This document shows, in pieces, positions 29,762 to 58,923 of a stretch of 64,000 bases of DNA (the stretch's first letter is position 1; the number at the start of each line of letters is the position of its first letter). The notes below the pieces were generated by a model, which had not been told where the DNA came from, ran no database searches, and saw only the letters and a list, made by a program, of their open reading frames with translations. Source of the stretch: Nocardioides sp. cx-173 (lineage in GTDB: Bacteria > Actinomycetota > Actinomycetes > Propionibacteriales > Nocardioidaceae); contig NZ_CP088262.1 of NCBI RefSeq assembly GCF_021117365.1, forward strand, positions 2,375,001 to 2,439,000. The letters are read 5' to 3'. Both the position numbers and the translations under genes were made by a program.

Positions 29762-31063
29762 ATGAGCACCCCCGGACCCGACCAGAGCAGGCAGCTGCTC
29801 GACGGTGTCCGCGCCGAGACCCGAGCAGCCACCGACGCCGAGCTGCGACGCCTCCACCTCGTCCACGACTGGTGCGCCCTCCACGAGACCCACGACGATG
29901 CCGACGCCGCGTTCGGCGACCACGGCATCCCGCTCGCCGGCCCCGGGGCACCCATGATCAGCGAGTTCGCGGTCATGGAGCTCGGCGCCGCCCTGGGCAT
30001 GTCGACCGACTCCGCCAAGCGCTACGTCGGCGCCGCCCTCGAGATCAAGTACCGCCTCCCCAGGATCTGGGCCCGCGTCGAAGCCGGTCAGCTCGGGTTC
30101 TGGAAAGCCCGCTGGATCGCCGAGCACACCAAGTGCCTACCCGCGGCCGGCGCCGCGTTCGTCGACGCCCGGGTCGCCTACTGCGCGCACAAGGTCTCCT
30201 ACGCCGAGGTCGAACGACAGATCACCACCGCGATCGCCAGGTTCGACCCCGAGCAGGCCGAGAAGCTACGCCGCCAAGCCGCCGACGGCCGCAAGCTCGA
30301 CATCCACACCGAGGCCATGTCCCTCGAAGGCACCATCGAGATCAACGGCACCCTGGACGCCCAGGACGCCCTCGACCTCGATGCCGCGATCAGCCGGCTC
30401 GCCGCCGACCGGAAGGCGGCGGGGTCGAGCGAGTCGTTGGATGTGCGACGCGCGCAGGCCGCCGGTGATCTGGCGCGGGGACAGGAGACGCTGTCCTTGG
30501 GTGATCAGGACGGTGGGGGTGGTTTCGAGGCTCGCTTCGCTCGCACCTCAACCACCGAGAAGAGCATCAAGATCACCCGGGTCATCGACCTGCACGTCCA
30601 CGAAGCCGGCGTCTTCGGCGACCCGAACGCCACCCTCGGCAGATGCGGCCGCAAGCCGGTGCTCGTCGAGACGATCCGCGAGTGGTGCGCCGCACCCGAC
30701 ACCACGGTCATCAACGTCAAGCCCGTGCGCGACCTGGCCGAGCACGTCCACGTCGCCGGCTACGAGCACCCCGACCGCCTCATCGAGCAGGACGACCTGG
30801 TCGACCACCACTGCGTGTTCCCCTGGTGCACCCGACCCGCCGAACGCTGCGACCACGACCACGTCACCCCCTACAACAAGGGCGGACCAACGTGCTCCTG
30901 CAACTCAGCACCCCTGTGTCGCGGACACCATCGCCTGAAAACGCACGGCCGCTGGACCTACGACGTCCTGGACCGCGGCACGTATGTCTGGCACTCACCC
31001 CACGGCGACGCCTACCGCCGCGACCACACCGGCACCGAACCACTCCAACACCAGAGACCCTGA
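29762..31063 (+). CDS. DUF222 / HNH endonuclease-domain protein
   Basis: The 433-residue protein has an N-terminal DUF222 domain (SEFAVMELGAALGMSTDSAKRYV near residue 65 and RIWARVEAGQLGFWKARWIAEHT near 105) and a C-terminal HNH nuclease domain, CDHDHVTPYNKGG then CSCNSAPLCRGHH, near 360-390. This family is multicopy in Nocardioides and mycobacteria; its job is not known. Residues 253-266 (GGFEARFARTSTTE) are encoded by an inserted palindromic repeat between the two domains, without breaking the frame. It lies just downstream of the repeat array. Confidence 0.88.
   Translation: MSTPGPDQSRQLLDGVRAETRAATDAELRRLHLVHDWCALHETHDDADAAFGDHGIPLAGPGAPMISEFAVMELGAALGMSTDSAKRYVGAALEIKYRLPRIWARVEAGQLGFWKARWIAEHTKCLPAAGAAFVDARVAYCAHKVSYAEVERQITTAIARFDPEQAEKLRRQAADGRKLDIHTEAMSLEGTIEINGTLDAQDALDLDAAISRLAADRKAAGSSESLDVRRAQAAGDLARGQETLSLGDQDGGGGFEARFARTSTTEKSIKITRVIDLHVHEAGVFGDPNATLGRCGRKPVLVETIREWCAAPDTTVINVKPVRDLAEHVHVAGYEHPDRLIEQDDLVDHHCVFPWCTRPAERCDHDHVTPYNKGGPTCSCNSAPLCRGHHRLKTHGRWTYDVLDRGTYVWHSPHGDAYRRDHTGTEPLQHQRP
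30518..30559 (+). repeat. Short palindromic repeat inside the DUF222/HNH gene
   Basis: GGTGGTTTCGAGGCTCGC, then TTC, then GCTCGCACCTCAACCACC form a hairpin of the same family as the array. It starts exactly on a codon boundary and codes for 14 residues. Confidence 0.88.
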
Positions 31064-31073
31064 CCGCCCCACA

Positions 31074-31090
31074 CCCCGCCACCCGCGGGG
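31074..31090 (+). terminator. Weak hairpin after DUF222/HNH gene
   Basis: CCCCGC, five-base loop, GCGGGG, starting 10 nt after the stop. Confidence 0.4.
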
Positions 31091-31190
31091 CCACCGGCGT
31101 GTCCGCCCGGCGTCCGCGCTTGTGATGCGCGACCCCGGGTTGCCGGCTGTGCTCAGAGTCCAAACCCGAGACTGGCGCACGCCGAGCCCC

Positions 31191-31202
31191 TACCCTGATC
31201 CG
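31191..31202 (+). promoter_or_regulatory. Leaderless-type promoter of GH6 gene
   Basis: TACCCT (31191-31196), 6 nt, GTG at 31203. Confidence 0.58.
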
Positions 31203-32270
31203 GTGATCCGCCGCGCGCTCGTCGTCCTCGTGACGCTGGCGGCCGCCCTGACGCTGGCGGCGCCAGCACCAGCGCCGGCCTCCCCCCGCATCGAGGACAC
31301 CAACCCGCTCGCCGGCCGCGCCTGGGGCGTGTACGGCGGTCGGGCCGAGCTGGCGTGGGAGCCGTACGTGCGCGCGACCGGCTGGCGCAAGAAGCTGCTC
31401 GCCAAGATCGCGCTCCGGCCTAAGGCCAAGTGGTTCGGCGGCTGGATCCCCGACGACAAGATCGCGGGCAAGGTGCGCGAGTACGTCGCCAACGCGACAG
31501 GGGGCGACCCCGAGGTCATGGTGTCGATGAGCGTCTTCCGGATGCGGCCGTGGGAGCGCACGGCGTGCCAGCGGCTGCCGACGAAGGAGGAGAAGGCCAG
31601 CTACCGGCGCTGGATCAACCGCTTCGCCCGCGCGCTCGGCGACACCCACACGATGCTGGTCCTGCAGCCCGACGGCCCCTTCGCGCTCTGTGCGCCGGGC
31701 GGCTCGAAGGTCCCCAGCCGGCTGATCGCGTGGAGCGCGCGGGTCCTCAGCGCGCTGCCCAACACCCACGTCTACCTCGAGGCGGGCGCCTCCGACTGGC
31801 TGCGCGTCGACGAGGCCGTGCAGCTGCTGGTCGACATGGGCGTGGGGCACACCCGCGGGCTCGCGCTCAACACCACCCACTACGACTCCCCCGAGGCCAA
31901 CATCCGCTACGGCGCCGAGGTCGCCGACCGGCTCGCGGCGCGCGGCATGCCTGGCAAGAAGGTCGTCGTGGACACCTCCCAGAGCGGCCGGCCGTTCACG
32001 TACCAGGACTGGAGGAGAAACCCCCAGGACCGCGACTACGCCAACGCCGCGCCGTGCCGCAACCGCACCCAGGTCCGCTGCGTCACCCTCGGCATCCCGC
32101 CGACCGCCGACGTCACCGACCCGGCGACCGGTCTCTCCGCCGAGGTGCGCGAGCTCGCGGGTCACTACGTCGACGCGTTCGTGTGGTCGGGCCGGCCGTG
32201 GCTGTTCATGCAGACCGAGCCGTTCCTGCTCAGGCGCGCGCTCAACATCGCCCGCACGACGCCGTACTGA
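31203..32270 (+). CDS. Secreted glycoside hydrolase family 6 (cellulase-type)
   Basis: The 355-residue protein has a clear signal peptide (RRALVVLVTLAAALTLAAPA, residues 3-22) and a GH6 domain. GH6 enzymes are inverting endoglucanases or cellobiohydrolases acting on beta-1,4-glucan. Family features seen are WGVYGG, the VLQPDGP strand, THVYLEAGASDWL near residue 186, LNTTHYDSPEANIRYG near 223 and VVDTSQSGR near 258. No cellulose-binding domain is present, so it is a single-domain enzyme. Start is GTG. Confidence 0.85.
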   Translation: MIRRALVVLVTLAAALTLAAPAPAPASPRIEDTNPLAGRAWGVYGGRAELAWEPYVRATGWRKKLLAKIALRPKAKWFGGWIPDDKIAGKVREYVANATGGDPEVMVSMSVFRMRPWERTACQRLPTKEEKASYRRWINRFARALGDTHTMLVLQPDGPFALCAPGGSKVPSRLIAWSARVLSALPNTHVYLEAGASDWLRVDEAVQLLVDMGVGHTRGLALNTTHYDSPEANIRYGAEVADRLAARGMPGKKVVVDTSQSGRPFTYQDWRRNPQDRDYANAAPCRNRTQVRCVTLGIPPTADVTDPATGLSAEVRELAGHYVDAFVWSGRPWLFMQTEPFLLRRALNIARTTPY

Positions 32271-32277
32271 AGGTTGC

Positions 32278-32325
32278 GGGGTCTCGAGGCTCGGGCCTGG
32301 CGGCCCTCACACCTCGACCACCGAA
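32278..32325 (+). repeat. Right half-copy of palindromic repeat
   Basis: GGTCTCGAGGCTCGGGCC...CACCTCGACCACCGAA fills almost the whole gap between the convergent GH6 and nitronate monooxygenase genes and may act as their shared terminator. Confidence 0.8.
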
Positions 32326-32329
32326 GGGG

Positions 32330-33433
32330 TCAGATCTCGCCGAGCCTGCGGACGGTCTCCTCGAACTCGGCCACCAGGTCGGCCATGACGTCGGCCACCG
32401 GGCGGACGTCGTTCATGCGGCCCACGATCTGGCCGATCGGCATCGAGATGACGTCGGGGTCGTTGGCGGCGCTGATCCGGTGGTGGGCCTGGGCGACGAG
32501 CAGGTTCTGCAGCGGCATCGGGAGCGGCGCGGGCGCGCCCTCCTCCTCCCAGGCCTGAGTCCACTTGGTCTTGAGCAGGCGGGCCGGCTTGCCGGTGTAG
32601 ACCCGGGTGCGCACGGTGTCGCTGCTGGTGGCGCGCGTGAACGCCGTCTCCCAGGCCTCGCTGTTGGCGGCGCCCATGAGCTGGTACTCCTGGGTGCCGA
32701 GCCAGATCGAGCCCATCCAGACGCCCTGCGACCCCAGCGCGAGCGAGGCGGCGACCTGGCGCCCGGAGCCGATGCCGCCGGCGCCGAGCACGGGTACGTC
32801 GGGCCCGACGGCGTCGACGATGTCGGGCTGCAGCACCATGCTGGCGACCTCGCCGGTGTGGCCGCCCGCCTCGTAGCCCTGCGCGACGATGATGTCGACG
32901 CCGTTGGCGACGTGGCTGAGCGCGTGCTTGGCGGCGCCGGCGAGCGCGGCGACCTTGATGCCGTGCTCGTGGCACTTCTCGATGACGTCGACCGGCGGCG
33001 AGCCCAGCGCGTTGGCGATCAGCACCGGCCGGTGCTGCAGCGCGACGTCGAGGTGCGAGCGGGCCACGGAGTGCAGCCAGCCGAGCACGCCCTCGCGGTC
33101 CTCGCCCTCGGGCAGCGGCGGCACGCCGAGCTTGAGCAGCGTCTGGTCGACGAACTGCCGGTGCTCCTCGGGGATCATCGCCCCGAGGTCCATCGAGGTG
33201 CCCTCGGTCGGGATCGTCATCGGCATGACGATGTCGACGCCGTACGGCTTGCCTTCGGTGTGGTCGTCGAGCCAGGTGAGGACCCGCTCGAGATCCTCGG
33301 CGTCGTTGAAGCGCACGCAGCCCAGCACGCCCAAGCCGCCCGCGCGAGAGACCGCGGCGGCGACGTGCTCGGAGGGCGTGAAGGCGAAGATCGGGTACTC
33401 GATCCCGAACTCCTCACACAGCGGCGTCCGCAT
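32330..33433 (-). CDS. Nitronate monooxygenase-family flavoprotein
   Basis: The 367-residue TIM-barrel FMN protein belongs to the 2-nitropropane dioxygenase family. Seen are SRAGGLGVLG near residue 30, AQGYEAGGHTGE near 185 and VLGAGGIGSGRQVAASLALG near 218, which bind FMN phosphate. Several members act in steroid and fatty acid breakdown rather than on nitroalkanes (IpdC is an example). The ATG start lies 20 nt inside the end of fadD19, so the two are coupled and under the same KstR-type control. Confidence 0.85.
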   Translation of the reverse strand: MRTPLCEEFGIEYPIFAFTPSEHVAAAVSRAGGLGVLGCVRFNDAEDLERVLTWLDDHTEGKPYGVDIVMPMTIPTEGTSMDLGAMIPEEHRQFVDQTLLKLGVPPLPEGEDREGVLGWLHSVARSHLDVALQHRPVLIANALGSPPVDVIEKCHEHGIKVAALAGAAKHALSHVANGVDIIVAQGYEAGGHTGEVASMVLQPDIVDAVGPDVPVLGAGGIGSGRQVAASLALGSQGVWMGSIWLGTQEYQLMGAANSEAWETAFTRATSSDTVRTRVYTGKPARLLKTKWTQAWEEEGAPAPLPMPLQNLLVAQAHHRISAANDPDVISMPIGQIVGRMNDVRPVADVMADLVAEFEETVRRLGEI

Positions 33434-35081
33434 CAGGCACCTCCGCCGTCTGCCCCGACCGGGTAGCCAGGGCCATCTGCTTCGCCTTGGGGTACTGCGC
33501 CTTGCCCGTCGCGTTGCGGGGGATCTCGGGCACCAGCGTCAGTGCCCGCGGCAGCTTGTAGCCCGACAGCGACGCGCGCAGGAACGCGCGCAGGTCCTCC
33601 AGCTCGACCGTCTCGCCCTCACGCGGCTGCACGACGGCGGCGACCGCCTGGCCGTACTTGTCGTCGGGGATGCCCACCACGAGGCAGTCGTAGACGGCGG
33701 GGTGGCCCTTGATCGCCATCTCCACCTCCTCGGGGTAGACCTTCTCGCCGCCGGTGTTGACGCAGTTGGAGCCGCGACCGAGCAGCGTGACCCGGCCGTC
33801 GGTCTCGATGCGCGCGAAGTCGCCCGGCACGGAGTAGCGCTCGCCGTCGATCTCCAGGAAGGTCTTGGCCGACTTCTCGGGGTCCTTGTAGTAGCCCACG
33901 GGCACCGACCCGCCGCGGCCGAGGCGCCCGATCCGGCCCACGTTCGTCGCCAGGTCCAGCACGTGGTCGTCGTCGCCGATGACCACGCTGGCCGGCCCGA
34001 GGCCGACGACCGGGCCGTCGTGGCTGATCGCGTTCCGGTCCTGCATCCCCATGCCCTGGAAGCCGGTCTCCGAGGCCCCCACCGAGTCGGTGAAGACGCT
34101 GTTCGGGAACGCCGCCATCCACCGCTCCTTCACCGGCGGGCTGAAGATCGCGGCACTGCTGGAGATCGCGAACAGGCTGGACCCGTCGTACGGCGTACCG
34201 GTCGCGGCCTTGCGCTCGTACTCCTCGATCAACGGGCGGGCCATCGCGTCGCCGGTCATGAAGATCAGCTGCACCTGCTCGCGCTCGATGATCTCCCAGG
34301 TACGCCGCGCGTCGAACTTCGGCTCGAGCACCGTCAGGTGCCCGGCGAAGAGGTGCATGAGCAGCCCGGCCTGCGCGCCGCCGTGCATCAGCGGGCTGAG
34401 CGGGAAGGTCACCATCCGGGGCTCGGTGGCCTGCTTCGACTGGTCGTACTCCGCCAGCGGCTCACCGGTGTAGAAGTCGATGCCGCCGCCGAGCACCCGC
34501 CAGAAGTCCTCGTGGCGCCACATGACGCCCTTGGGGAAGCCTGTGGTGCCGCCGGTGTAGATGATGTGGAGGTCGTCGGGGCTGCGCTCGCCGAAGTCGC
34601 GCTCCTCGCTCTGCCCCTCCAGGGCGGCCTCGATGGTCACGCCGCCGAACGGCGAGAGGTCGGCGACGTTGTCGGGGTCGAGCGCGTCGGGGATGGCGAC
34701 GAAGGTCGTGAGCTTCTCGTGGTTCGGCGCGCAAGCGGCCACCAGCGGCGCGTAGGTGCGCTCGTGGATCAGCGCCACGACGTCGGCGTTGTCGAAGAGG
34801 TAGTTGAGCTCGCCCTCGACGTAGCGGTAGTTGACGTTGATGTTGACCGCGCGCACCTTGACCACGGCCAGGACCGCGACGACGTGCTCGACACTGTTCT
34901 TCGCGTAGACGGCGACGTGGTCGCCGGCCCCGATGCCTCGCGAAGCCAGGTAGTGCGCCAGCCTGTTGGCGTCGCGCTCCAGCTCGCCGTACGTGACGAC
35001 TCGCTCCCCCACCTTCAGGGCGCGGTTGTCGGGCGCGGCGTCGACGGCGTGCTCGAAGAGGTCGGCGATGTTCAGGGCCAC
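33414..35081 (-). CDS. fadD19: Steroid side-chain acyl-CoA synthetase, FadD19-like
   Basis: The 555-residue AMP-forming ligase has IIYTGGTTGFPKGVMW near residue 173, FTDSVGASETGFQGMG near 320 and the C-terminal Lys in NATGKAQYPKAKQ. FadD19 in M. tuberculosis and Rhodococcus activates the C26 or C24-branched sterol side chain. The name is supported by the divergent echA19 neighbour, as in Rv3515c/Rv3516, and by the shared KstR-type site. Start is GTG, 6 nt after TAGTCT. Confidence 0.88.
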   Translation of the reverse strand: MALNIADLFEHAVDAAPDNRALKVGERVVTYGELERDANRLAHYLASRGIGAGDHVAVYAKNSVEHVVAVLAVVKVRAVNINVNYRYVEGELNYLFDNADVVALIHERTYAPLVAACAPNHEKLTTFVAIPDALDPDNVADLSPFGGVTIEAALEGQSEERDFGERSPDDLHIIYTGGTTGFPKGVMWRHEDFWRVLGGGIDFYTGEPLAEYDQSKQATEPRMVTFPLSPLMHGGAQAGLLMHLFAGHLTVLEPKFDARRTWEIIEREQVQLIFMTGDAMARPLIEEYERKAATGTPYDGSSLFAISSSAAIFSPPVKERWMAAFPNSVFTDSVGASETGFQGMGMQDRNAISHDGPVVGLGPASVVIGDDDHVLDLATNVGRIGRLGRGGSVPVGYYKDPEKSAKTFLEIDGERYSVPGDFARIETDGRVTLLGRGSNCVNTGGEKVYPEEVEMAIKGHPAVYDCLVVGIPDDKYGQAVAAVVQPREGETVELEDLRAFLRASLSGYKLPRALTLVPEIPRNATGKAQYPKAKQMALATRSGQTAEVPDADAAV

Positions 35082-35105
35082 GCCGCGAGACTAGAACACG
35101 TTCTT
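35082..35105 (-). promoter_or_regulatory. KstR-type operator and fadD19 leaderless promoter
   Basis: TAGAACACGTTCTT (35092-35105, plus strand) matches the KstR consensus at 7 of 8 fixed positions. On the minus strand it runs into TAGTCT (35088-35093), 6 nt before the fadD19 GTG. It also lies just before the echA19 -10. Confidence 0.75.
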
Positions 35106-35114
35106 GTTTTTCGC

Positions 35115-35126
35115 TAGCCTCGCGTC
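35115..35126 (+). promoter_or_regulatory. Leaderless-type promoter of echA19
   Basis: TAGCCT (35115-35120), 6 nt, ATG at 35127. Confidence 0.6.
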
Positions 35127-35948
35127 ATGAGCAGCCAGGACGTCACCCGCGAGTCCACCGAGCCCGCCCCGCACTGCCTCGTCGAGCAGGTCGGCCACAC
35201 CCTGGTGGTCACGATGAACCGCCCCGAGGCCCGCAACGCGCTGTCCGGCGAGATGCTCGCGATCATGGGTGAGGCGTGGGACCGGGTGAACTCCGACGAC
35301 TCGGTGCGCGTCTGCATCCTCACCGGAGCCGGCGGCTACTTCTGCGCCGGCGCCGACCTCAAGGCCATGGACTCCCGACCCCCGTCGGCCAGCTTCGACT
35401 CCGGCGACTTCGACCCCTCGGTGATCAAGCCCCTGCTCAAGGGGTTCCGCCTCACCAAGCCGCTCATCGCCGCGGTCGAGGGCCCGGCCGTCGCCGGTGG
35501 CACCGAGATCCTCCAGGGCACCGACATCCGCGTGGCCGGCGCGTCCGCCAGGTTCGGCGTCACCGAGGCCCGCTGGAGCCTCTACCCGCTGGGCGGCTCC
35601 GCCGTGCGCCTGATCCGGCAGCTGCCCTACACCGTCGCCGCCGAGCTGCTCCTCACCGGCCGCACCATGACCGCTTCCGAGGCCAAGGAGGTCGGCCTGA
35701 TCGGCCACGTCGTCCCCGACGGCACCGCCCTAGCCAAGGCGCACGAGCTCGCCGACCTCATCGCCGCCAACGGCCCGCTCGCCGTCCAGGCGATCCTGCG
35801 GACCATGCGCGACTCCGAGGGCAAACACGAGGACGACTGCTGGGCCGACGACGCCCGCGTCGGCGCCGCCGTCTTCGCCTCGAACGACGCCAAGGAGGGC
35901 CCCCGCGCGTTCGCCGAGAAGCGCGCGCCGCAGTTCACTGGGACCTGA
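35127..35948 (+). CDS. echA19: Enoyl-CoA hydratase, EchA19-like
   Basis: The 273-residue crotonase-fold enzyme adds water to enoyl-CoA thioesters. The oxyanion-hole motifs are [11 protein letters not shown] near residue 72 and [16 protein letters not shown] near 118; the second catalytic acid lies in [11 protein letters not shown] near 148. EchA19 of M. tuberculosis hydrates C22-type cholesterol enoyl-CoA. The divergent pairing with fadD19 and the KstR-type site between them support the name. Its 3' end overlaps the convergent GH3 gene by 14 nt. Confidence 0.88.
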
Positions 35949-39248: not shown

Positions 39249-39267
39249 CTCGTCCTCTCCGCGGCCG

Positions 39268-39303
39268 TCCGTCTGGCCGTTCGTCTGGCCGTTCGTCTGG
39301 CCG
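39268..39303 (-). repeat. 12-bp tandem repeat before lacI
   Basis: Three copies of a CGTCTGGCCGTT-like unit stand between the permease stop and the lacI start. If the upstream ATG is used they code for QTNG repeats. Confidence 0.65.
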
Positions 39304-39304
39304 G

Positions 39305-41073: not shown

Positions 41074-41080
41074 GCTCAGC

Positions 41081-47363: not shown

Positions 47364-47366
47364 ACG

Positions 47367-47390: not shown

Positions 47391-47411
47391 ATCCCGGGTC
47401 AGCCGCCTCGG

Positions 47412-48215: not shown

Positions 48216-48227
48216 CCCCGGATCCTA
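48216..48227 (-). promoter_or_regulatory. Leaderless-type promoter
   Basis: On the minus strand TAGGAT (48222-48227), 6 nt, ATG at 48215. Confidence 0.6.
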
Positions 48228-48373
48228 CGTCGGCGTGCCAGCGCGTCCGGGTCCTGCCGACGCTCGCGACGCGCCGAGCGGGTGCACCGAAGGCCGTACG
48301 CGGGTCCGGCGCCGACGGTAGCGTGGGGCCGCCGACGGCACACCAGGTGTCGCAGACGAAGGAGCACGACCGG

Positions 48374-50652: not shown

Positions 50653-50674
50653 CGCCGGCCCGTCAGCCGGCCCG

Positions 50675-51580: not shown

Positions 51581-51924
51581 CGCTCCCGGGCGCGGACCAA
51601 CCAGGCGCACAGGCCCCACAGCGCGACGAACATGGCGTTGACGCCCAGGACGTCGACGACCGAGGAACCCTCCGGCGGCAGGCCTGTGGCGAGGGCCGCG
51701 GCGGTGACCGCGGCCTGGGTGGCGGCGGTGGCGAGCAGCGTGAGCGCCATCCCGGGCGACCGGAGCCGGGAGAGGGCGGCGCCGAGCACCAGGACGGCGA
51801 GGACGGCGGCGTAGACCCGGTCGGGGCGTCCCCCGGGCCCCAGAATGCCGAGGGCGCCCGAGGCGAGCACCAGGAAGAGCGCCGTCGCGCCGGTGAGGGC
51901 GAGACCGAGCCGGTGGCGGGTCAT
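51577..51924 (-). CDS. Small membrane protein, four segments
   Basis: The 115-residue protein consists of about four hydrophobic helices (near residues 7-27, 38-52, 60-80 and 90-110) joined by short loops. It has no motif I recognise. It is translationally coupled to the hydrolase downstream. Confidence 0.7.
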   Translation of the reverse strand: MTRHRLGLALTGATALFLVLASGALGILGPGGRPDRVYAAVLAVLVLGAALSRLRSPGMALTLLATAATQAAVTAAALATGLPPEGSSVVDVLGVNAMFVALWGLCAWLVRARER

Positions 51925-51987
51925 CGGTCCACGTTCGCTGCGAAGGTCATGCGTCCGACGCTAGGGACGGCGCCGGTGAGGAGGTGG

Positions 51988-52500
51988 TCAGGACGTGTGG
52001 AGGTCCTGTGCAGGTTGCCGCACGTGGCGCCACTCGCGGGCGAGGTGGAGTGCCAGCAGTCCGAGTACGGCACCGATCACCGACCCGACGCTGTTGGCCA
52101 GCCAGTCGTTGGTCGAGCACGAGCGCCCCAACGCGGGCAGCAGCGCCTGGACGGCCTCCACCGCCGCCGAGAGGCCGGTGCCGAAGGCCAGGGCCAGCGC
52201 CGGGCTCCGCGTCGCCACCGCAGCGAGCAGCACCGGCGCGACGAAGAGGACGACGTTGGCGGCCAGCTCGACCCGCGCGATCGTGGGCACGCTCCAGGCC
52301 ACCTCGCAGCGTGAGTACAGCTGCCGGTCCACCGGCACCAGGGTCAGCAGCGCCACCGGGACGAGCGAGGCGCAGGTGAGCGCCCAGGCCAGCCCCCGCC
52401 GGGTGCTCAGCCAGGCCCCCGCGAACGGTCCGACGACCAGCAGCAGCGTGAGCGCCGCCGGGGACAGCCACGGGTGCTCGATGAGGATGGTGGTGATCAC
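51988..52500 (-). CDS. VanZ-like family membrane protein
   Basis: The 170-residue protein has five hydrophobic segments and the VanZ-type ending SCSTNDWLANSVGSVIGAVLG near residue 128, where Asp and Asn are conserved. VanZ gives low-level teicoplanin resistance in enterococci, but most members have no known role. Start is GTG with TAGGCT exactly 6 nt upstream. Confidence 0.82.
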   Translation of the reverse strand: MITTILIEHPWLSPAALTLLLVVGPFAGAWLSTRRGLAWALTCASLVPVALLTLVPVDRQLYSRCEVAWSVPTIARVELAANVVLFVAPVLLAAVATRSPALALAFGTGLSAAVEAVQALLPALGRSCSTNDWLANSVGSVIGAVLGLLALHLAREWRHVRQPAQDLHTS

Positions 52501-52512
52501 GAGTCGAGCCTA
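52501..52512 (-). promoter_or_regulatory. Leaderless-type promoter of VanZ-like gene
   Basis: On the minus strand TAGGCT (52507-52512), 6 nt, GTG at 52500. Confidence 0.6.
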
Positions 52513-52573
52513 GGATCCGCCTCCGGGCGCGGCCTCCACCCTGGGTACCGACGCGTGGCCCGCAGGTGCCTGC

Positions 52574-53593
52574 TCAGCCCAGGAGCCGGCGCACCTCGGG
52601 CGAGGAGTAGAACGGCTCGAGCCGGGCGCGCACCAGCCGCTCGAGGTCGCCGGCCTCCCGCAGCGCGTCCACGACGCCGGGCGCGAGCCGCACCAGGTCG
52701 GCGACCAGCTCGTCCCGGTCCAGGTCGAGCTCGTCGAGCAGCTCCGGTGCCGTGTAGCCGCCGAAGCGCTCCAGGAGGGCGTCCACGACGGCGTCGCCGA
52801 GGCGCGCGACCTCCTCGTGGGCGAGGGTGGAGACGACGAGCTCGTGCACGGCGTCGACCAGCCCGGCGAGCTCCTTGCGCGTCGCCGGGTCCTCGACCCC
52901 GACGACCGGTCGCTCGGCCGCGAGGTCCCAGACCTGCAGGACCGCCGCGCGGGTCGTCGGGTCGCGCAGCGTCTCGATCACGATCCGGTTGAGGCGGCCC
53001 ACGGCGAAGGAGCCGCCCTTGCCGACGGTGTCGCCGATCAGGCCCTCGAACTGCTTGTCGGCGGCGCCCATCATCCGCGACGCCGCGCTCGTCCCGAACG
53101 ACATCAGGCTGCCCAGGCCCGGCACCTTGTCGGCGACGGCCTTGTTGGCCTGCAGCACCTCGCCGACGATGCGGCCCATGAAGCGCGAGGCCATCGTCCC
53201 CACCAGAGGGCTGGCCGTCAGCCGTGCCAGGCCGCGCTCCAACGCCGGCGTGAGCGCCAGGAGCTCGTCGAGCACGGCCGCGACCTGGTCGCGGTCGACG
53301 AGGTCGCCGAGCGGGTACGCCGCCGCCGGTCCGTCGTACACGACCTGGGCGGCGAGCTCGACGAAGCCGCCGACGGCCGCGCTGCCGGGCACCGTCGCGA
53401 GCGAGCGCGCGACGATCTCCTTGACGGCGTCGGCGTCGACCAGGTCCCCGATCGGGTGCCGGCCGGCGGCCTCGAGGGCATCCTGCGCCAGCCGGGTGAC
53501 GGTCTCGGCCAGCCGGTCACCGCTCAGGTGCTCGAGGTGGAAGGCGACCTGGGCGTCGAGGAGCTGCTGCGCGAGGGACTCACTGGTGGGCAC
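52574..53593 (-). CDS. Helical protein of unknown function
   Basis: I do not recognise a family. The 339 residues are almost all helical, with two similar stretches that read IGDLVDADAVKEIVARSL and LGDLVDRDQVAAVLDELL, suggesting an internal repeat, a Gly/Phe-rich middle (MSFGTSAASRMMG near residue 170) and an acidic C-terminal part. No signal peptide or membrane segment. Start is GTG with TACGGT 6 nt upstream. Confidence 0.72.
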   Translation of the reverse strand: MPTSESLAQQLLDAQVAFHLEHLSGDRLAETVTRLAQDALEAAGRHPIGDLVDADAVKEIVARSLATVPGSAAVGGFVELAAQVVYDGPAAAYPLGDLVDRDQVAAVLDELLALTPALERGLARLTASPLVGTMASRFMGRIVGEVLQANKAVADKVPGLGSLMSFGTSAASRMMGAADKQFEGLIGDTVGKGGSFAVGRLNRIVIETLRDPTTRAAVLQVWDLAAERPVVGVEDPATRKELAGLVDAVHELVVSTLAHEEVARLGDAVVDALLERFGGYTAPELLDELDLDRDELVADLVRLAPGVVDALREAGDLERLVRARLEPFYSSPEVRRLLG

Positions 53594-53605
53594 GGCATGA
53601 CCGTA
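53594..53605 (-). promoter_or_regulatory. Leaderless-type promoter
   Basis: On the minus strand TACGGT (53600-53605), 6 nt, GTG at 53593. Confidence 0.55.
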
Positions 53606-53615
53606 CGGGAGCGGG

Positions 53616-54644
53616 TCAGACGTCGGCGACCAGCGGGACCACCTCGGTGCCGAGGAGCTCGATGCCGCGCAGCAGGTCCGCGTGGGCCAGTCGCGGGTTG
53701 GTCATCTGCAGCGAGAGCCGGTCCACGCCGCCCAGCTGGTCGGCGACGCGCCGGATCTTGTCCGCCACGGTCTGCGGGTCACCCATGAAGAACGCGCCGT
53801 CGGGGCCCGACGTCGCGTCGAACTGCGCGCGCGTGGGGCGCGGGAACCCGCGCTCGCGAGAGACCTTGGTGAACATCTCCTCCCAGCCCGGGTAGATGGT
53901 GTCGGCGGCCGCCCGGGTGCTCTCGGCCACGAAGCCGAACACGTGCAGCCCGACCTGGAGCCGCTCGGGCGGGTGGCCGGCCTGCGCGCCCGCACGCCGG
54001 TAGAGGTCGACGAGCGGGGCGAACTGGCGCGGCTCCCCACCGATGATCGCGACCATCAGCGGCAGGCCGAGCAGCCCCGCCCTGGCGAACGACTCCGGGG
54101 TGCCGCCGACACCGACCCAGATCGGGAGCGGGTCCTGGAGCGGTCGCGGATAGACCCGCTGCCGGTCCAGGGCCGGGCGGTGCCGCCCGGACCAGGTGAC
54201 CTCCTCGTCGTCGCGCAGGCGCAGCAGCAGCTCGAGCTTCTCGGTGAAGAGCGAGTCGTAGTCGGCCAGGTCCAGCCCGAACAGGGGGAACGCCTCGGTG
54301 AACGAGCCGCGGCCCACAACCAGGTCGATCCGGCCCTTCGAGAGCAGGTCGAGGGTGGCGAACTGCTGGAAGACCCGCACCGGGTCGGCCGCGCTCAGCA
54401 CGGTCACGGCGCTGCCGAGCCGGATCCGCTCGGTGCGGGCGGCCGCGGCGGCGAGGATCACCGGGGGCGCGGAGTCGTAGTACTCGCTGCGGTGGTGCTC
54501 CCCGATCCCGAACGAGTACAGGCCGACCCGGTCGGCGAGCGCGATCTCCTCGAGGAGGTGCTCCAGGCGCTCCGCGGGGCCGACGACGTGGCCCGTCCTC
54601 GGGTCGGTGACCGTGGACACGAAGCTGTCGACGCCGAGATGCAT
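53616..54644 (-). CDS. LLM-class flavin-dependent oxidoreductase (luciferase-like)
   Basis: The 342-residue protein is a bacterial luciferase-fold monooxygenase: GIGEHHRSEYYDSAPPVILA near residue 46, RIRLGSAVTVLSAADPVRVFQQFATLDLLSKGR region near 73-105, and DLVVGRGSF near 108. The alkanal monooxygenase-like branch uses FMN, other branches F420; which one cannot be read here. The ATG lies within a 9-bp inverted repeat that may be its operator. Confidence 0.88.
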   Translation of the reverse strand: MHLGVDSFVSTVTDPRTGHVVGPAERLEHLLEEIALADRVGLYSFGIGEHHRSEYYDSAPPVILAAAAARTERIRLGSAVTVLSAADPVRVFQQFATLDLLSKGRIDLVVGRGSFTEAFPLFGLDLADYDSLFTEKLELLLRLRDDEEVTWSGRHRPALDRQRVYPRPLQDPLPIWVGVGGTPESFARAGLLGLPLMVAIIGGEPRQFAPLVDLYRRAGAQAGHPPERLQVGLHVFGFVAESTRAAADTIYPGWEEMFTKVSRERGFPRPTRAQFDATSGPDGAFFMGDPQTVADKIRRVADQLGGVDRLSLQMTNPRLAHADLLRGIELLGTEVVPLVADV

Positions 54645-54666
54645 GCTGCGATTCAACCAGCATGCA
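54640..54666. promoter_or_regulatory. Inverted repeat over the LLM start
   Basis: TGCATGCTG (54640-54648) and CAGCATGCA (54658-54666) form a perfect 9-bp inverted repeat around a 9-nt spacer. The left arm contains the start codon of the LLM gene, so a bound repressor would block transcription start. Confidence 0.5.
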
Positions 54667-54717
54667 ACGATTCGGGCCGCCCGAGCGTCGTAGCGGGTAG
54701 ACCTGGGGAGGGGCTCG

Positions 54718-55266
54718 ATGCACGTGAGGTGTGCCGCACTCGCGGCGACGCTGGTCCTGGCGCTGTCCGCGTGCACCGGCCACGAGAACGGGCCGCCGTC
54801 ACCCGCGGCCGCCGACCGGGCGGCCGCCGCGGCCGACGCCGCCGCCGCGTTCGTCGCCTTCGCCCAGGGCGAGGAGTCGCAGGTGCGGTGGGCGGGCGTC
54901 GTCCGCTACTACGTGCACGGCGCCCTGGTGGCGGAGTTCGTGCCCTCCTTCGCCGACGACCCCGACACCTGGGACGGCTGCCACGCCGGCGATACGACGT
55001 ACGAGGGACGCGACTGCCCGGTCTCCCCGCTCTCGACCATCGGCCAGGACGAGGCGCCCGGCGCCGGACCGGTGGTGGAGGAGGCGGCCCCGCAGACGGT
55101 GGGGTGCACAGCCGACCTGCCGCGAGCCGACGTGGACGCGACCCCGCTGGCGTGGATCCGGCCGGACCCGGACCTGCGCGACTGCTTCAGCGACTACGCG
55201 GTGACGCTGTACCTCGACGACGACGAGCGGGTGAGCGCCGTCGACCTCGTGCTCAGCGGGCCCTAG
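54718..55266 (+). CDS. Secreted lipoprotein of unknown function
   Basis: The 182-residue protein has a lipoprotein signal ending in LSAC near residue 19, an Ala-rich helix, and a small domain with six or so Cys residues (DGCHAG, RDCPV, VGCTAD, RDCFSD) that could form disulfides outside the cell. GGGGAGG precedes the ATG. Its TAG stop shares CTAG with the convergent membrane protein gene. No family recognised. Confidence 0.75.
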   Translation: MHVRCAALAATLVLALSACTGHENGPPSPAAADRAAAAADAAAAFVAFAQGEESQVRWAGVVRYYVHGALVAEFVPSFADDPDTWDGCHAGDTTYEGRDCPVSPLSTIGQDEAPGAGPVVEEAAPQTVGCTADLPRADVDATPLAWIRPDPDLRDCFSDYAVTLYLDDDERVSAVDLVLSGP

Positions 55267-56144
55267 CAGCATCCCGGCTCGGGTCCCTCGCCCGCGGACA
55301 GTCGGGTGACCACGGCGCCCGCAGGCGCCGACCTCGGGCGGGTGCCGTCCGAGGTGCCGGACAGGCGCCAGGCGCCCACCCCGTCGAAGATGCCGGGCCA
55401 GGGGGTCTCGTCGACCACCACGGAGGCTCCCTCCCCGCCACCCACGACCGTGCCGGGGTAGGCGGCGTGCAGCCGCTGCCAGCTGTCGCCGAGGCGGAGC
55501 CCAGAGCCGGCCAGGCTCACGTCGAGGCGGGTGGCGGCCTTCGCGGAGTCCTCGGTGGCCGCCCATCGCCGCCTGTCCGACAGCTCCCAGCCGCGCAACG
55601 CCAGCGCGCCCGCCTCGTCCCCGCCGAAGACCAGGCACAGCTGCCCCCAGCAGGCCACCGAGACCACGGGGTACCCCCAGCTCAGGGAGGTCGGGTCGTC
55701 GGCCTGCTCGAACCAGCCGTCGCTGCCCGGGATCTTGGCGTAGGAGATCGGGCCGACCGTGAGGTCGGGCTCGCCGAGCCGGGTCGTGACCGCGGCCAGC
55801 ACGCCCTCGGCGGGGGCGCCGAACGCCTGGTCCCCGACGCCGTTGCCCGAGACGCGGACCGGGCGCTGGACCACGCTCTGGTCCGAGGTCGGCGCGGAGG
55901 TGGGCGCCGAGGTGGCCCGATCGGCGGGGTCCGGAGCCCCACCCCGCCCCTCGTCGCCGAGCCGGGAGGCGACGCCGATCCCTCCGATCGCCACCGCCAC
56001 GGACGCCGCCACCGCGAGCACGCCTCGGGTGCGGTGGGAGCGGCGGCGGCGCCGGCCGTCCTGGAGGATCGCGTGGACGGGGGGCAGTGGGACATCGAGG
56101 TGCTGAGCCTCGTCGCGGAGCAGGTGCCGGAGCTGGTCGGTCAT
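55263..56144 (-). CDS. Membrane partner of SigE-type sigma factor
   Basis: The 293-residue protein starts with a short cytoplasmic helix (LRHLLRDEAQHLDVPLPP), a basic RRRRRSHR stretch, one membrane segment (residues 41-58) and an extracellular domain with Cys pairs (ACWGQLC near 165, EPGCC at the end). The layout is that of membrane proteins co-expressed with SigE-family ECF sigma factors, which often act as anti-sigma factors. The typical zinc anti-sigma motif HxxxCxxC is absent, so an anti-sigma role is uncertain. ATGA overlap with the sigma gene. Confidence 0.75.
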   Translation of the reverse strand: MTDQLRHLLRDEAQHLDVPLPPVHAILQDGRRRRRSHRTRGVLAVAASVAVAIGGIGVASRLGDEGRGGAPDPADRATSAPTSAPTSDQSVVQRPVRVSGNGVGDQAFGAPAEGVLAAVTTRLGEPDLTVGPISYAKIPGSDGWFEQADDPTSLSWGYPVVSVACWGQLCLVFGGDEAGALALRGWELSDRRRWAATEDSAKAATRLDVSLAGSGLRLGDSWQRLHAAYPGTVVGGGEGASVVVDETPWPGIFDGVGAWRLSGTSDGTRPRSAPAGAVVTRLSAGEGPEPGCC

Positions 56145-56656
56145 GACGGCGTCCCTTCGGTGCTGAAGTCGATGGAGTCGCCGAGGAGCGCCCGGAGCCT
56201 GCCGAGCCCCGCGGAGGTCTGGCTCTTGACGGTGCCCTCGCTGCACCCCAGGACCCGGGCGGCCTCGGCGACGCTCAGGTCCTCGTAGAAGCGGAGCACC
56301 ACGACCGCGCGCTGCCGGGGCGGCAGGTCGCCCAGCGCGGCCATCAACGCCGGCCGCACCGAGTGGTCGGGTGAGTACGGCGTCTCCGGGAGGACGTCGG
56401 TCAGGTGCTCGGGGCGACGGGCCCGGCTGCGGAACCAGGACATGGCGGCGCGCACGACCGCGGTCCGCGCGTAGGCCCGGGCCGCGCCCAGGTCCCGCAC
56501 CCGGTGCCACGAGACGTAGGTGTTGGTCAGCGCGGTCTGCACGAGGTCCTCGGCCAGGGCATGGTTGCCGACCAGGAGGTACGCCGTGCGGTACAGCGGC
56601 CCCCACGCCGCCGTCACGAGCGCGGCGTACTCCTCGTCCGTGCGCCGGCTGCTCAC
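56141..56656 (-). CDS. ECF sigma factor, SigE family
   Basis: The 171-residue sigma factor has region 2 (YRTAYLLVGNHALAEDLVQTAL near residues 22-44) and region 4 (LPPRQRAVVVLRFYEDLSVAEAARVLGCSEGTVKSQ near 112-147). The YAALV...LYRTAYLLVG start is typical of the SigE/SACE_1270 group in actinobacteria. GTG is preceded by GGGAG. It is coupled to a membrane protein gene downstream, the probable signal receiver. Confidence 0.9.
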   Translation of the reverse strand: MSSRRTDEEYAALVTAAWGPLYRTAYLLVGNHALAEDLVQTALTNTYVSWHRVRDLGAARAYARTAVVRAAMSWFRSRARRPEHLTDVLPETPYSPDHSVRPALMAALGDLPPRQRAVVVLRFYEDLSVAEAARVLGCSEGTVKSQTSAGLGRLRALLGDSIDFSTEGTPS

Positions 56657-56762
56657 GGCGTCTCCCTCATGTTCACACCACTGAGGACGCCGGCGGAGCG
56701 GGTCCGGTTGGGCGGCGCACCCCAGGAGATCTCCGAGACGGCATCCCCATGGGCCACGGGCG

Positions 56763-57806
56763 TCAGGCCAGCACCTCGGCGATGGCGCGGACCTCTGCGG
56801 CGTCGCGGCAGCTGAGCAGCAGCGTGGTCACGCCGGTCTCCTCCCACTGCGCGGCGCGCTCCCTGACCTCGGAGGCGGTGCCGATGATGTGCATGTCGTC
56901 GACGAGGTCGTCGGGGATCAGCGCGACCGCTCGGTCCTTCTCCCCCTCGAGGTAGAGCCGCTGCACCTCGTCGGCGAGCGCCTCGTGGCCCATCCGCTCG
57001 AAGACCTGCTTGTGGAAGTTCTGGGCCTTGGCGCCCATGCCTCCCATGTAGAGGGCGACCACCGGCTTCATCCCCGCGAGCACCGCGGCCTTCTCCTCGG
57101 ACCCGGAGACGATCTGTACGTGGCAGGTGGCGGCGATCTCGAAGTCGTCGCGCGTACGACGGGCGCCCGGCCGCGCGAAGCCCTCGTCGAGCCAGGGCTG
57201 GTACATCGCCGCGGAGCCGGGTGTGTAGAAGATCGGGATCCAGCCGTCGGCGATCTCGGCCGTCTGCGCGACGTTCTTGGGCCCCTCGGCGCCGAGCCAG
57301 ATCGGGATGTCGGCGCGCAGCGGGTGCACGATCGGCTTGAGCGGCTTGCCCAGGCCGACCGAGCCGGGGCCGGCGTACGGCAGCGGGTAGTGCGGCCCGT
57401 CGTTGGTGACCTTCTCCTCACGGGCCAGGACCTGCCGGATGATGTCGACGACCTCGCGGGTGCGCGCCAGCGGCTTGGAGAACGGCTGGCCGTACCAGCC
57501 CTCGACGACCTGGGGCCCGCTCACGCCCATGCCCAGCACGACCCGCCCGCCACTGAGGTGGTCGAGGGTCAGCGCATGCATCGCGATGGAGGTCGGAGTG
57601 CGGCCGGACATCTGGACGATCGAGGTCCCGAGGCGCAGCCTCGAGGTCTCGCGACCCCACCAGGCCAGGGGCGTGAACGCGTCGGAGCCCCACGCCTCGG
57701 CGGTGAAGATCGCGTCGAAACCGGCGTCCTCGGCCGCCGCGACCAGCTCCGCGGTCCCCGTCGGGGGCTGCGCGCCCCAGTAGCCGAGCTGCAGTCCGAG
57801 TTTCAT
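56763..57806 (-). CDS. LLM-class oxidoreductase, Rv3520c-like
   Basis: The 347-residue luciferase-like protein has LGLQLGYWGAQPP at the start, AWGSDAFTPLAWWGRETSRLRLGT near residue 40, ALTLDHLSGGRVVLGMGVSGPQVVEGWYG near 80-108 and IPIWLGAEGPKNV near 165. These fit F420-dependent members. Its length and divergent placement next to a DUF35 gene and two Ltp thiolases match Rv3520c-Rv3523, part of the KstR regulon. I chose ATG 57806 with AAGGG upstream; GTG 57815 is possible. Confidence 0.87.
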   Translation of the reverse strand: MKLGLQLGYWGAQPPTGTAELVAAAEDAGFDAIFTAEAWGSDAFTPLAWWGRETSRLRLGTSIVQMSGRTPTSIAMHALTLDHLSGGRVVLGMGVSGPQVVEGWYGQPFSKPLARTREVVDIIRQVLAREEKVTNDGPHYPLPYAGPGSVGLGKPLKPIVHPLRADIPIWLGAEGPKNVAQTAEIADGWIPIFYTPGSAAMYQPWLDEGFARPGARRTRDDFEIAATCHVQIVSGSEEKAAVLAGMKPVVALYMGGMGAKAQNFHKQVFERMGHEALADEVQRLYLEGEKDRAVALIPDDLVDDMHIIGTASEVRERAAQWEETGVTTLLLSCRDAAEVRAIAEVLA

Positions 57807-57840
57807 GGCGCCCACCCTTCCAAACGCTTGCCCCGAAATC

Positions 57841-57864
57841 TAGAACGTGTTTCACTTTCGAACC
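57841..57864 (+). promoter_or_regulatory. KstR operator, LLM/DUF35 divergent promoter
   Basis: TAGAACGTGTTTCA (57841-57854) matches TnnAACnnGTTnnA at every fixed position. CACTTT (57853-57858) is 6 nt before the ATG at 57865 and may be the -10 box of a leaderless message. Confidence 0.8.
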
Positions 57865-58923
57865 ATGTCCCGCACTCTGTCCGCGCCGGTCACGGTCGCC
57901 TTCGACTACACCAGATCCACCGGGCCGGTGCTCGGCCGGTTCCTCACCGGGCTGCGCGACGGGGTGCTCGTGGGCGCTCGCACCTCGCAGGGCGAGGTGG
58001 TCGTCCCACCGCTGGAGTACGACCCCGTGACCCACGAGCAGACGGCCGACTTCGTGGAGGTCGAGCCGGTCGGGACGGTCACGTCGTGGTCCTGGGTCCC
58101 GGAGCCGGTCGCGGGACAGCCCTTCGACCGGCCGTTCGCCTTCGCGCTGGTCACCCTCGACGGCGCGACGAGGCCGATGCTGCACGCCGTCGACGTCGCC
58201 TCCCCCGCCGAGATCCGCACCGGGATGCGGGTGCAGGTGCGCTGGGCCGAGGAGCGGGTCGGGCACATCACCGACATCGCATGCTTTGAGCCCGAAGCCG
58301 GCCGCGACGAAGGAGCGGACGGCGCCACGGAGCTGTCGAGACCCGGTGAGGCGGACGCGGACGGTGGTTTCGAGGCTCCCTTCGAGGCTCGCGGGCTCGC
58401 ACCTCAGGACGAGCGCTCCGCTCGCACCTCAACCACCGAGGGCGACGTGACCGGGGTGGTCACCCCGGTCTCGCTCGACTACGTGTACGCCGCCTCGCCT
58501 GAGGAGTCGACGTTCTACCGCGGTCTCGACGAGGGCCGGATCCTGGCCCAGCGCTGCCCGACCTGCGACAAGGTCTACGTGCCGCCGCGCAGCGCCTGCC
58601 CCACCGACGGGACGCCGACCGAGGGCGAGGTCGAGCTCAGTGGGCTGGGCACGATCACGACGTTCTGCATCGTCAACGTGCCGTTCCTGGGCCAGAAGAT
58701 CGCGCCACCGTACGTCTCGGCGTACGTGCTGCTCGACGGCGCCGACATCGCCCTGCTCCACCTGATCCTGGGCGTGCCGGCCGACGAGGTCCGGATGGGC
58801 ATGCGCGTCGAGGCGGTGTGGAAGCCCCGCGAGGAGTGGGCGTACTCGCTCGAGAACATTGACCACTTCGCGCCCACCGGCGACCCGGACGCGGACTACG
58901 ACACCTACCAGCGCCACCTCTGA
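57865..58923 (+). CDS. DUF35-type OB-fold protein, Rv3521-like, with repeat insertion
   Basis: The 352-residue protein holds two OB-fold/DUF35 parts: residues 1-150 (RFLTGLRDGVLVGARTSQG, ending in VGHITDIACFEPE) and residues 198-352, which carry a rubredoxin-like zinc ribbon CPTCDKVYVPPRSACPTD. Such proteins are obligate partners of Ltp-type thiolases or aldolases. Residues 167-192 (GGFEAPFEARGLAPQDERSA then RTSTTE) come from an inserted palindromic repeat in the interdomain linker, making the protein longer than the roughly 300 residues I recall for Rv3521. Confidence 0.87.
   Translation: MSRTLSAPVTVAFDYTRSTGPVLGRFLTGLRDGVLVGARTSQGEVVVPPLEYDPVTHEQTADFVEVEPVGTVTSWSWVPEPVAGQPFDRPFAFALVTLDGATRPMLHAVDVASPAEIRTGMRVQVRWAEERVGHITDIACFEPEAGRDEGADGATELSRPGEADADGGFEAPFEARGLAPQDERSARTSTTEGDVTGVVTPVSLDYVYAASPEESTFYRGLDEGRILAQRCPTCDKVYVPPRSACPTDGTPTEGEVELSGLGTITTFCIVNVPFLGQKIAPPYVSAYVLLDGADIALLHLILGVPADEVRMGMRVEAVWKPREEWAYSLENIDHFAPTGDPDADYDTYQRHL
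58363..58440 (+). repeat. Palindromic repeat inside the DUF35 gene
   Basis: GGTGGTTTCGAGGCTCCC ... CGCTCGCACCTCAACCACCG: a 78-bp family member with an extra inner arm (CTCGCACCTCAGGACGAGCG). It begins on a codon boundary and keeps the frame. A flanking TGTCGAGACCCGGTGAGGCG at 58337-58356 also resembles repeat sequence. Confidence 0.87.

What the first reader, a model, noticed from the sequence alone, without database searches (positions are those of the whole stretch)
30518..58440. Palindromic repeats inserted in frame into two unrelated proteins
The DUF222/HNH gene (30518-30559) and the DUF35 gene (58363-58440) each contain a member of the same repeat family that is otherwise intergenic. Both begin with GGT GGT TTC GAG GCT on a codon boundary and end with CGC ACC TCA ACC ACC GAG, adding GGFEA...ARTSTTE peptides of 14 and 26 residues. 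Both sit in linkers between domains. The only close precedent I know is the Rickettsia palindromic elements, which also insert in frame in genes. The shared phase suggests that the element keeps a stop-free frame that proteins tolerate, or that only such insertions survive. This looks like an actinobacterial system of protein-tolerated mobile repeats.
Basis: partly seen in the sequence, partly recalled or inferred. Interest (0 to 1): 0.78.

Follow-up and report, generated by a model that had tools for sequence, protein, structure and literature searches.

The report
Palindromic repeats that become protein linkers
In the bacterium Nocardioides, short self-complementary DNA repeats that mostly sit between genes have landed in frame in flexible linkers of several unrelated proteins, and some of the same linkers carry such repeats in several species.

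Summary
Both genes carry an in-frame member of a palindromic repeat family: 42 nt in the DUF222 gene, 78 nt in the DUF35 gene. The DUF222 copy is identical over 40-42 nt to copies at nine other places in this genome. Both inserts fall in stretches predicted to be disordered.

The reading needs three changes. (1) In DUF222 the repeat sits at one site shared by 9 of 10 close paralogues, so it spread with the gene family. (2) The shared phase is not general. Other copies use other entry phases and both orientations, although certain frames dominate. (3) It is wider than claimed. This genome has two more host families, an APS kinase-phosphatase fusion and an MFS transporter. In other species the same linkers hold two or more repeat ends in 9 of 29 (kinase fusion), 3 of 29 (DUF35) and 3 of 29 (MFS) loci (own genome left out).

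In-frame REPs are in print for Rickettsia and other bacteria (PMC3733652), so this is a new variant of a known kind. The REP transposase family PF01797 was found in 0 of 118 genomes of the genus. Repeats stand just upstream of 16 of 23 DUF222 genes here. What moves them is unknown.

The parts
29012..29677 (.). Array of palindromes of the GGTGGTCGAGGTGCG type in both orientations (hairpins and spacers), ending about 85 bp before the DUF222 start codon
   Evidence: Nine arms listed; sequence; arms within 450 bp upstream of 16 of 23 DUF222 genes of the genome
29762..31063 (+). DUF222 gene (PF02720) with a C-terminal HNH-like Cys/His motif (motif recognised by eye; no Pfam HNH hit)
   Evidence: nine close paralogues in the genome
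30518..30559 (+). In-frame palindrome, 42 nt, peptide GGFEARFARTSTTE, residues 253-266, inside a stretch with pLDDT below 50 (246-274)
32281..32322 (-). Isolated copy of the C-type palindrome outside both host genes
57865..58923 (+). DUF35 gene (zf-ChsH2 PF12172 + OB_ChsH2_C PF01796), host of the second element
   Evidence: start codon as in P0001 (352 aa)
58363..58440 (+). In-frame palindrome, 78 nt, peptide GGFEAPFEARGLAPQDERSARTSTTE, residues 173-198 of the 358-residue reading from 57847, inside a stretch with pLDDT below 50 (159-215)
58379..58414 (+). Second palindrome of 36 nt nested inside the first; the outer 42 nt are the short element with one mismatch
   Evidence: comparison of the two elements; a similar nested unit is seen in the upstream arrays

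Best explanation
The elements are REP-like palindromes: hairpins of about 30-45 nt, mostly outside genes, present in most sampled Nocardioides genomes. Shown: copies occur in frame inside genes, in both orientations, nested and in tandem, and some inter-domain linkers carry them in several species. Inferred: copies arrive without regard to genes; those that break a domain, shift the frame or bring a stop are lost; those in disordered linkers or loops, in a tolerated frame, survive and then serve as linker. The window's DUF222 element is a family trait: it was carried by gene duplication, and the element at that site was exchanged among versions (42 nt, 78 nt, and a version with a GGACTTCGTCC hairpin), probably by recombination or gene conversion. 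The DUF35 element looks younger: the orthologue of the nearest named relative (cx-169, 85% identical) has no such peptide there. What copies the repeats is not known; it is not a transposase of family PF01797.
For: Copies. Hairpin under constraint: in 117 distinct hairpins the stem position Y..R is C-G 52, T-A 51, C-A 10, T-G 4 (Fisher p 4.7e-18, not corrected for shared descent; a few coding matches are among the 117). Genus-wide: pattern in 94 of 118 genomes, reversed control 0 in all. Depleted from genes but not absent: 11 of 104 matches (10 sites) against 144 of 204 control positions. Repeat in the gap between two Pfam matches: APS kinase / LMWPc in two species (L042, L310), CbiA / GATase_3 (L282), Molybdopterin / Molydop_binding (L274), UvrD_C / PDDEXK_1 (L305), and just before the second ABC domain of L132. 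Same linkers, 30 loci each with the own genome included: two or more repeat ends in 10 (APS kinase fusion), 4 (DUF35), 4 (MFS), against 1.7%, 0 and 0.2% of control windows. Disordered sites. Frames: reverse copies read GTG GTY GAG in 8 of 9 and forward copies leave in ACC TCR ACC ACC in 10 of 12 cases. No PF01797: 0 of 118, control genomes 5 of 14.
Against: No exact pre-insertion site at DNA level was obtained for either window element; cx-169 was seen only as protein, and the one DUF222 paralogue without the element (L015) has a TTTCGAGGCTCC stretch that could be a remnant. Not all hosts are hit between domains: in L151, L155, L264, L270, L255, L205 and the two MFS proteins the repeat lies inside a Pfam match. 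The APS kinase and MFS linkers were chosen because copies had been found there, the own genome and G080 (L331) among them, so the 30-locus tests are partly circular; orthologues share descent. The reverse element in the APS kinase linker of G009 is also in the cx-169 protein, so loss in the window's genome is as likely as gain elsewhere. The phase bias rests on 9 and 12 cases, three of the 12 being DUF222 proteins, and misses are known that the pattern did not catch (L101, L322). Hydropathy does not explain the favoured frames: the favoured reverse frame is the most hydrophobic of the three and has a stop in 17% of hairpins. With one repeat end as criterion the DUF35 excess is small (5 of 30 against 4.7%). 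No evidence of translation of the inserts.
Confidence: 0.75

Rival explanations
1. The linkers are ordinary low-complexity linkers of a high-GC genome, and the resemblance to the repeats is convergent composition.
For: Many orthologues have linkers of similar length and character without any repeat.
Against: The DUF222 element is identical at DNA level, 40-42 nt, to copies at nine other places; both window inserts fold better than shuffled sequence (z -2.9 and -2.2, 2 of 200 shuffles each as good); control windows carry two repeat ends in 0 to 1.7%.
Confidence: 0.04
2. DUF222/HNH proteins are the partner that spreads these palindromes, in the way RAYTs serve classical REPs; the arrays upstream of DUF222 genes and the palindrome inside them are its recognition and source sequences.
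For: 16 of 23 DUF222 genes here have repeat arms within 450 bp upstream of the domain match, in two distant paralogue groups (9 of 10 and 7 of 7), 0 of the other 6. At least 101 of the genome's 165 arms lie within 3.2 kb upstream of a DUF222 gene; none was seen downstream in the 0.65-2 kb fetched there. In 6 of 20 named loci of other species (N. abyssi, N. oceani, strain IC4_145) repeats of other sequence stand at the same place. No PF01797 in 118 genomes.
Against: In 54 DUF222 loci of other genomes with full flanks the excess is small: repeated content upstream in 7, downstream in 3; three or more repeat ends upstream in 27, downstream in 20. N. szechwanensis and N. psychrotolerans loci show none upstream. 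One of the six array-less genes (L010) has a single arm under a looser pattern, and one of the 16 has a single arm under the strict one. DUF222 relatives are in 117 of 118 genomes in each of two searches, so presence does not discriminate, and numbers could not be correlated because the searches score about 14-17 candidates a genome and the repeat pattern misses other families. Co-duplication of gene and array explains the own-genome association without an enzymatic link.
Confidence: 0.2
3. The palindromes were spread by a dead or very different transposase (MITE-like) and are now only shuffled by recombination between copies, without active transposition.
For: No PF01797 in 118 genomes; arrays with a 153-bp period, nested copies and three versions at one DUF222 site fit recombination.
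Against: Elements identical over 40 nt at ten places suggest recent multiplication. Target duplications and terminal signatures were not looked for systematically.
Confidence: 0.35
4. The intragenic hairpins are kept because they act in the mRNA or DNA (pausing between domains, protein binding), not because the peptide is tolerated.
For: Hairpins keep their pairing; several sit between domains; the GGACTTCGTCC version is identical in 7 paralogues and its peptide recurs in other species.
Against: Orthologues without the repeat are more common than those with it in all three linkers by the two-end criterion; the frame bias points to selection on the reading.
Confidence: 0.12

Closest known systems
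Rickettsia palindromic elements (RPE)
   Same: Palindromic repeats inserted in frame in unrelated protein genes (PMC10969869, passages read; PMC3733652, section 15 read).
   Different: RPEs are described there as about 150 bp with a conserved peptide; these are units of roughly 30-45 nt in several frames and both orientations, in an actinobacterium, nested or tandem, with some linkers used in several species.
REP / BIME elements with intragenic copies (GTAG- and CGTC-tagged families)
   Same: Short imperfect palindromes, high copy number, mostly intergenic, in alternating orientation; some lie inside ORFs and at about the same site in two Xanthomonas species, in recB (PMC3733652).
   Different: GTAG or CTAC lies within a few bases of an end in only 7 of 336 matches; no PF01797 transposase in 118 genomes; the conserved ends are GGTGGTY and RACC.
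RAYT / TnpA-REP systems (REPtrons)
   Same: A gene with repeats clustered beside it (PMC8266576, passages read).
   Different: The gene beside the arrays is DUF222/HNH, not an HUH transposase; no link beyond position is shown.
REP13E12 / DUF222 repeats of Mycobacterium tuberculosis
   Same: DUF222/HNH genes as repeated sequence (PMC10589994, passages read).
   Different: No mycobacterial copy was compared here for arrays or in-frame palindromes.

Membership tests
REP (repetitive extragenic palindrome) | Short palindrome, high copy number, mostly intergenic | tested here: met
   165 arms in the genome; 94 of 118 genomes; 93 of 104 sampled matches not called intragenic; covariation
REP (repetitive extragenic palindrome) | GTAG or CGTC tag beside the palindrome | tested here: not met
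   GTAG/CTAC within a few bases of an end in 7 of 336 matches; CGTC was not scanned
REP (repetitive extragenic palindrome) | RAYT (Y1 HUH transposase, PF01797) in the genome | tested here: not met
   0 of 118 genomes, 5 of 14 control genomes ring; own genome 0
BIME | REPs of alternating orientation with spacers, in tandem | tested here: met
   Alternating arms; 153-bp period, 16.3 copies, in L012
Rickettsia palindromic elements | In-frame insertion in unrelated protein genes | tested here: met
Rickettsia palindromic elements | Element of about 150 bp with one conserved encoded peptide | tested here: not met
   Hairpin cores of 28-47 nt (longer ones were cut off at 50); several frames
Rickettsia palindromic elements | Sequence homology to RPE families | not tested
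   No RPE sequence was compared
MITE | Terminal inverted repeats matching an autonomous transposon, target duplication | tested here: inconclusive
   No empty DNA site for the window elements; no parent transposon sought beyond PF01797

The most novel reading that the evidence does not exclude
Nocardioides runs a RAYT-independent palindrome system in which amplified DUF222/HNH genes are partner and reservoir, and which keeps supplying new protein linkers: repeat insertion, nesting and tandem growth rebuild the same linkers of conserved enzymes in each lineage.
Probability: 0.2. Interest if true: 0.87.

Novelty: new variant of a known kind. Interest (0 to 1): 0.64.

Why it matters
It extends protein-tolerated palindromes from Rickettsia and scattered REP cases to an actinobacterial genus with many orthologous filled and empty linkers to compare. 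That makes an open question testable: how do repeats become protein sequence, in which frames, and how often. The lack of PF01797 transposases together with repeats beside DUF222/HNH genes also offers a concrete candidate for an unknown mobiliser and a first hint at a role for DUF222.

Tried and rejected
Convergent linker composition: rejected, because the DNA copies are identical. RAYT as mobiliser: rejected for PF01797. DUF222 as general mobiliser: left open; own-genome association strong, genus-wide one weak. Known RNA family: no Rfam match above gathering in the window. NCBIfam or PADLOC name for the DUF222 protein: none.

Rows set aside: of 336 repeat-like matches, 90 had no stop-free frame or lay too near an edge. 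Of the 32 called intragenic I set aside L130, L141 and L146 as plain coding matches without a palindromic middle (two of them would have added to the favoured reverse frame, one to the favoured forward exit), counted the DUF222 group I paralogues once and the two overlapping L310 matches once. Copies seen in an earlier locus were counted there, so the 104 are not all copies in the 100 stretches. The 100 stretches come from the listing; G058, G005, G113, G088, a few contig-edge hits and some coding-looking hits of the same listing were left out. In one search the expression found the linker in 56 of 120 proteins, 32 with repeat-type words; the 64 misses were not examined and the words were chosen by eye. 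Four of the 58 loci given to one search lacked flanks and were not counted. In the literature searches no listed title or abstract start is about in-frame palindromes in Actinobacteria; most subscription journals are not held.
Full report
WHAT IS THERE. The two elements exist as described. The window is part of a single-contig 4.45 Mb genome close to Nocardioides sp. cx-169: the DUF35 protein is 85% and the APS kinase fusion 92% identical to that strain's. At 30518 the element is GGTGGTTTCGAGGCTCGCTTCGCTCGCACCTCAACCACC plus GAG. At 58363 the same ends enclose a second palindrome of 36 nt. Both fold better than shuffled sequence (z -2.9 and -2.2). The 12-base left end occurs 27 times in the genome, control 0; the other arm 165 times with one mismatch allowed, control 1.

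DUF222: ONE SITE, MANY PARALOGUES. The host gene at 29762-31063 has nine close paralogues (81-92% identical by tblastn). Nine of the ten genes carry a palindrome at this site, in three versions: the 42-nt version of the window, a 78-nt version (L022), and a version with a GGACTTCGTCC hairpin in seven genes, identical in all seven over 42 nt. The tenth, L015, lacks it and also lacks the array upstream; but its linker holds TTTCGAGGCTCC, so it may be a remnant rather than an original empty site. So the DUF222 case is mainly one old insertion, multiplied with the gene and later exchanged. The window's version is identical over 40-42 nt to copies at nine other places, while the 78-nt version of DUF35 has one relative among the 40 fetched own-genome stretches and the window, in the DUF222 gene L022 (97.4%). 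Copying between DUF222 and DUF35 linkers is therefore possible. In homologues of other species the linker shows related peptides in some and none in others, even among paralogues of one species (N. lijunqiniae P0132, P0136 without; P0137-P0139 with).

DUF35: A VARIABLE LINKER THAT IS HIT REPEATEDLY. The insert lies before the zinc ribbon match; the model puts residues 159-215 below pLDDT 50 (the alignment had 37 sequences, mean pLDDT 70.8). In 120 homologues the linker is highly variable. Several carry peptides that match readings of repeats: GGFEARSARTSTT, GGFETGASAPSSTT, VEEVAQQPSRNPS (twice in P0007, three times in P0008), VVEVRGAPATSLETT, VVEPVETP (three times in P0068); these were seen as protein only. 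cx-169 has GEVPTDGGDEQGDVTG where the window has GEADADGGFEAPFEARGLAPQDERSARTSTTEGDVTG. At DNA level, of 30 loci the linkers of L099 (window), L102, L104 and L113 hold two or more repeat ends, against 0 of 555 control windows; with one end as criterion it is 5 of 30 against 4.7%. By eye L101 and L117 also hold an element. L101 has the window's type of element in another phase.

OTHER HOSTS. I fetched 100 stretches around repeats of nine other genomes. Of 104 repeat matches there, 11 (10 sites) lie in frame inside a gene by codon usage on both sides, against 144 of 204 shifted positions. Twenty proteins with intragenic copies were scanned with Pfam (repeat positions). Between two domain matches: APS kinase-LMWPc fusion (own L042 and L310), CbiA/GATase_3 (L282), Molybdopterin/Molydop_binding (L274), UvrD_C/PDDEXK_1 (L305); just before the second ABC domain (L132). 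Inside a domain match: MFS transporter (own L047 residue 234, L280 residue 233; probably the central loop, not tested), class I tRNA synthetase (L255), pyridine nucleotide reductase (L151), hydantoinase (L155), aminotransferase (L264), FAD-binding protein (L270), DUF222 (L205). Outside a single match: tetrapyrrole methylase (L281), glycosyl transferase (L248), lipoyl ligase (L154), DUF222 (L202 and the window), DUF35 of the window. So this genome has at least four host families, and linkers are favoured but not the only sites.

SAME LINKERS IN OTHER SPECIES. In 30 loci of the APS kinase fusion 10 have two or more repeat ends in the linker and 17 at least one; controls 1.7% and 8.4%. For the MFS loop 4 and 10 of 30; controls 0.2% and 3.8% (Fisher tests). 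Without the own genome the two-end counts are 9, 3 (DUF35) and 3 (MFS) of 29 each. The APS kinase and MFS linkers were chosen because copies had been met there in two species, and orthologues share descent, so these are not independent events. Sequences show both orientations, tandem copies (L331, L354, L370) and mixed pairs (L320, L334). G009, the genome of the 118 with the most similar proteins, has a forward element where the window's genome has one and in addition a 39-nt reverse element further on; the cx-169 protein has both too, so the window's genome may have lost the second.

PHASE. In the intragenic set, reverse copies read GTG GTY GAG in 8 of 9 cases (p 0.001 for three equal phases, 0.02 for two) and forward copies leave in ACC TCR ACC ACC in 10 of 12 (p 0.0005; three of the 12 are DUF222 proteins). 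In the three linkers 17 of 19 reverse entries are in the first frame. Forward entry phase is mixed. Over 117 hairpins the third reverse frame has a stop in 52%, the favoured one in 17%; the favoured reverse frame is not the most hydrophilic, but has the best codon score of the reverse frames. So a filter on frames is supported, its cause is open, and the single shared phase of the finding is not general. Counter-examples: L255, L248, L132, L101, L322.

HAIRPIN. The stem position Y..R covaries: C-G 52, T-A 51, C-A 10, T-G 4 in 117 distinct cores of 28-47 nt.

ARRAYS AND DUF222. Arms in alternating orientation form arrays, with a 153-bp period and 16.3 copies in L012. In one search, 16 of 23 DUF222 genes have at least one arm within 450 bp upstream of the domain match: 9 of 10 of the window's group, 7 of 7 of a second group, 0 of the other 6 (a looser pattern finds one arm at L010). 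At least 101 of the genome's 165 arms lie within 3.2 kb upstream of a DUF222 gene (144 arms were in fetched stretches), expected share 1.7%; none was seen downstream, where only 0.65-2 kb had been fetched for most genes. In N. abyssi (L056, L060-L062), N. oceani (L063) and strain IC4_145 (L054) repeats of other sequence stand at the same place, 6 of 20 loci. In 54 other loci with full flanks the excess is small: 7 upstream, 3 downstream. Gene-plus-array duplication is the sober reading.

NO RAYT. PF01797 gives 0 of 118 genomes, with 5 of 14 control genomes positive.

WHAT IS KNOWN. PMC3733652 (passages and section 15 read) reports REPs inside ORFs of several bacteria and in recB at about the same site in two Xanthomonas. 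PMC10969869 (passages) reviews RPEs. PMC8266576 (passages) describes GTAG recognition by TnpA-REP. PMC10589994 (passages) mentions REP13E12/DUF222. Other papers were seen only in search listings, none of them with a title or abstract start about in-frame palindromes in Actinobacteria.

VERDICT. Real, general in the genus, and broader than the finding; a new variant of the RPE / intragenic REP kind. Mechanism of spread unknown.

Noticed in passing
L054-L057, L059-L063, L065, L191-L194, L210, own L024 and L029, upstream of the DUF222 gene: A CGAAC-N4-GTTCG box, which fits the LexA (SOS) box of Gram-positive bacteria as I recall it, stands upstream of DUF222 genes in 10 of 18, 5 of 58 and 2 of 13 loci and of 0 of 10 group I genes; downstream in none of these windows. 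DUF222/HNH may be damage-inducible in some lineages.
   Followed up: partly
window 29012-29677; L012:2015-4495; L019: Arrays of composite palindromes stand directly upstream of most DUF222/HNH genes of two paralogue groups of this genome.
   Followed up: partly
L100 and proteins P0002, P0004, P0018, P0020, P0022-P0023, P0026, P0028 (DUF35 linker): A second recurrent linker module (such as RARPQPRDEAATEQSRSG) and a third (such as DEASARPAGGGLLEDHLV) occur in DUF35 linkers; not matched to a repeat family.
   Followed up: no
window about 31064-31105 and the same place in the other group I DUF222 copies: The ten group I DUF222 copies share a similar tail (CCGCCCCACACCCCGCCACC.GCGGGGCCACCGGC; L018 only in part) after the stop codon before the flanks diverge, which looks like the 3' end of the duplicated unit.
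   Followed up: partly
L035 (1.846 Mb): One DUF222 paralogue is frameshifted near codon 139.
   Followed up: no
proteins P0126, P0135, P0140, P0141 and others: The peptide GGFETGLRPSSTT recurs at the DUF222 linker in homologues only 62-71% identical, so this version may be old or functional.
   Followed up: partly
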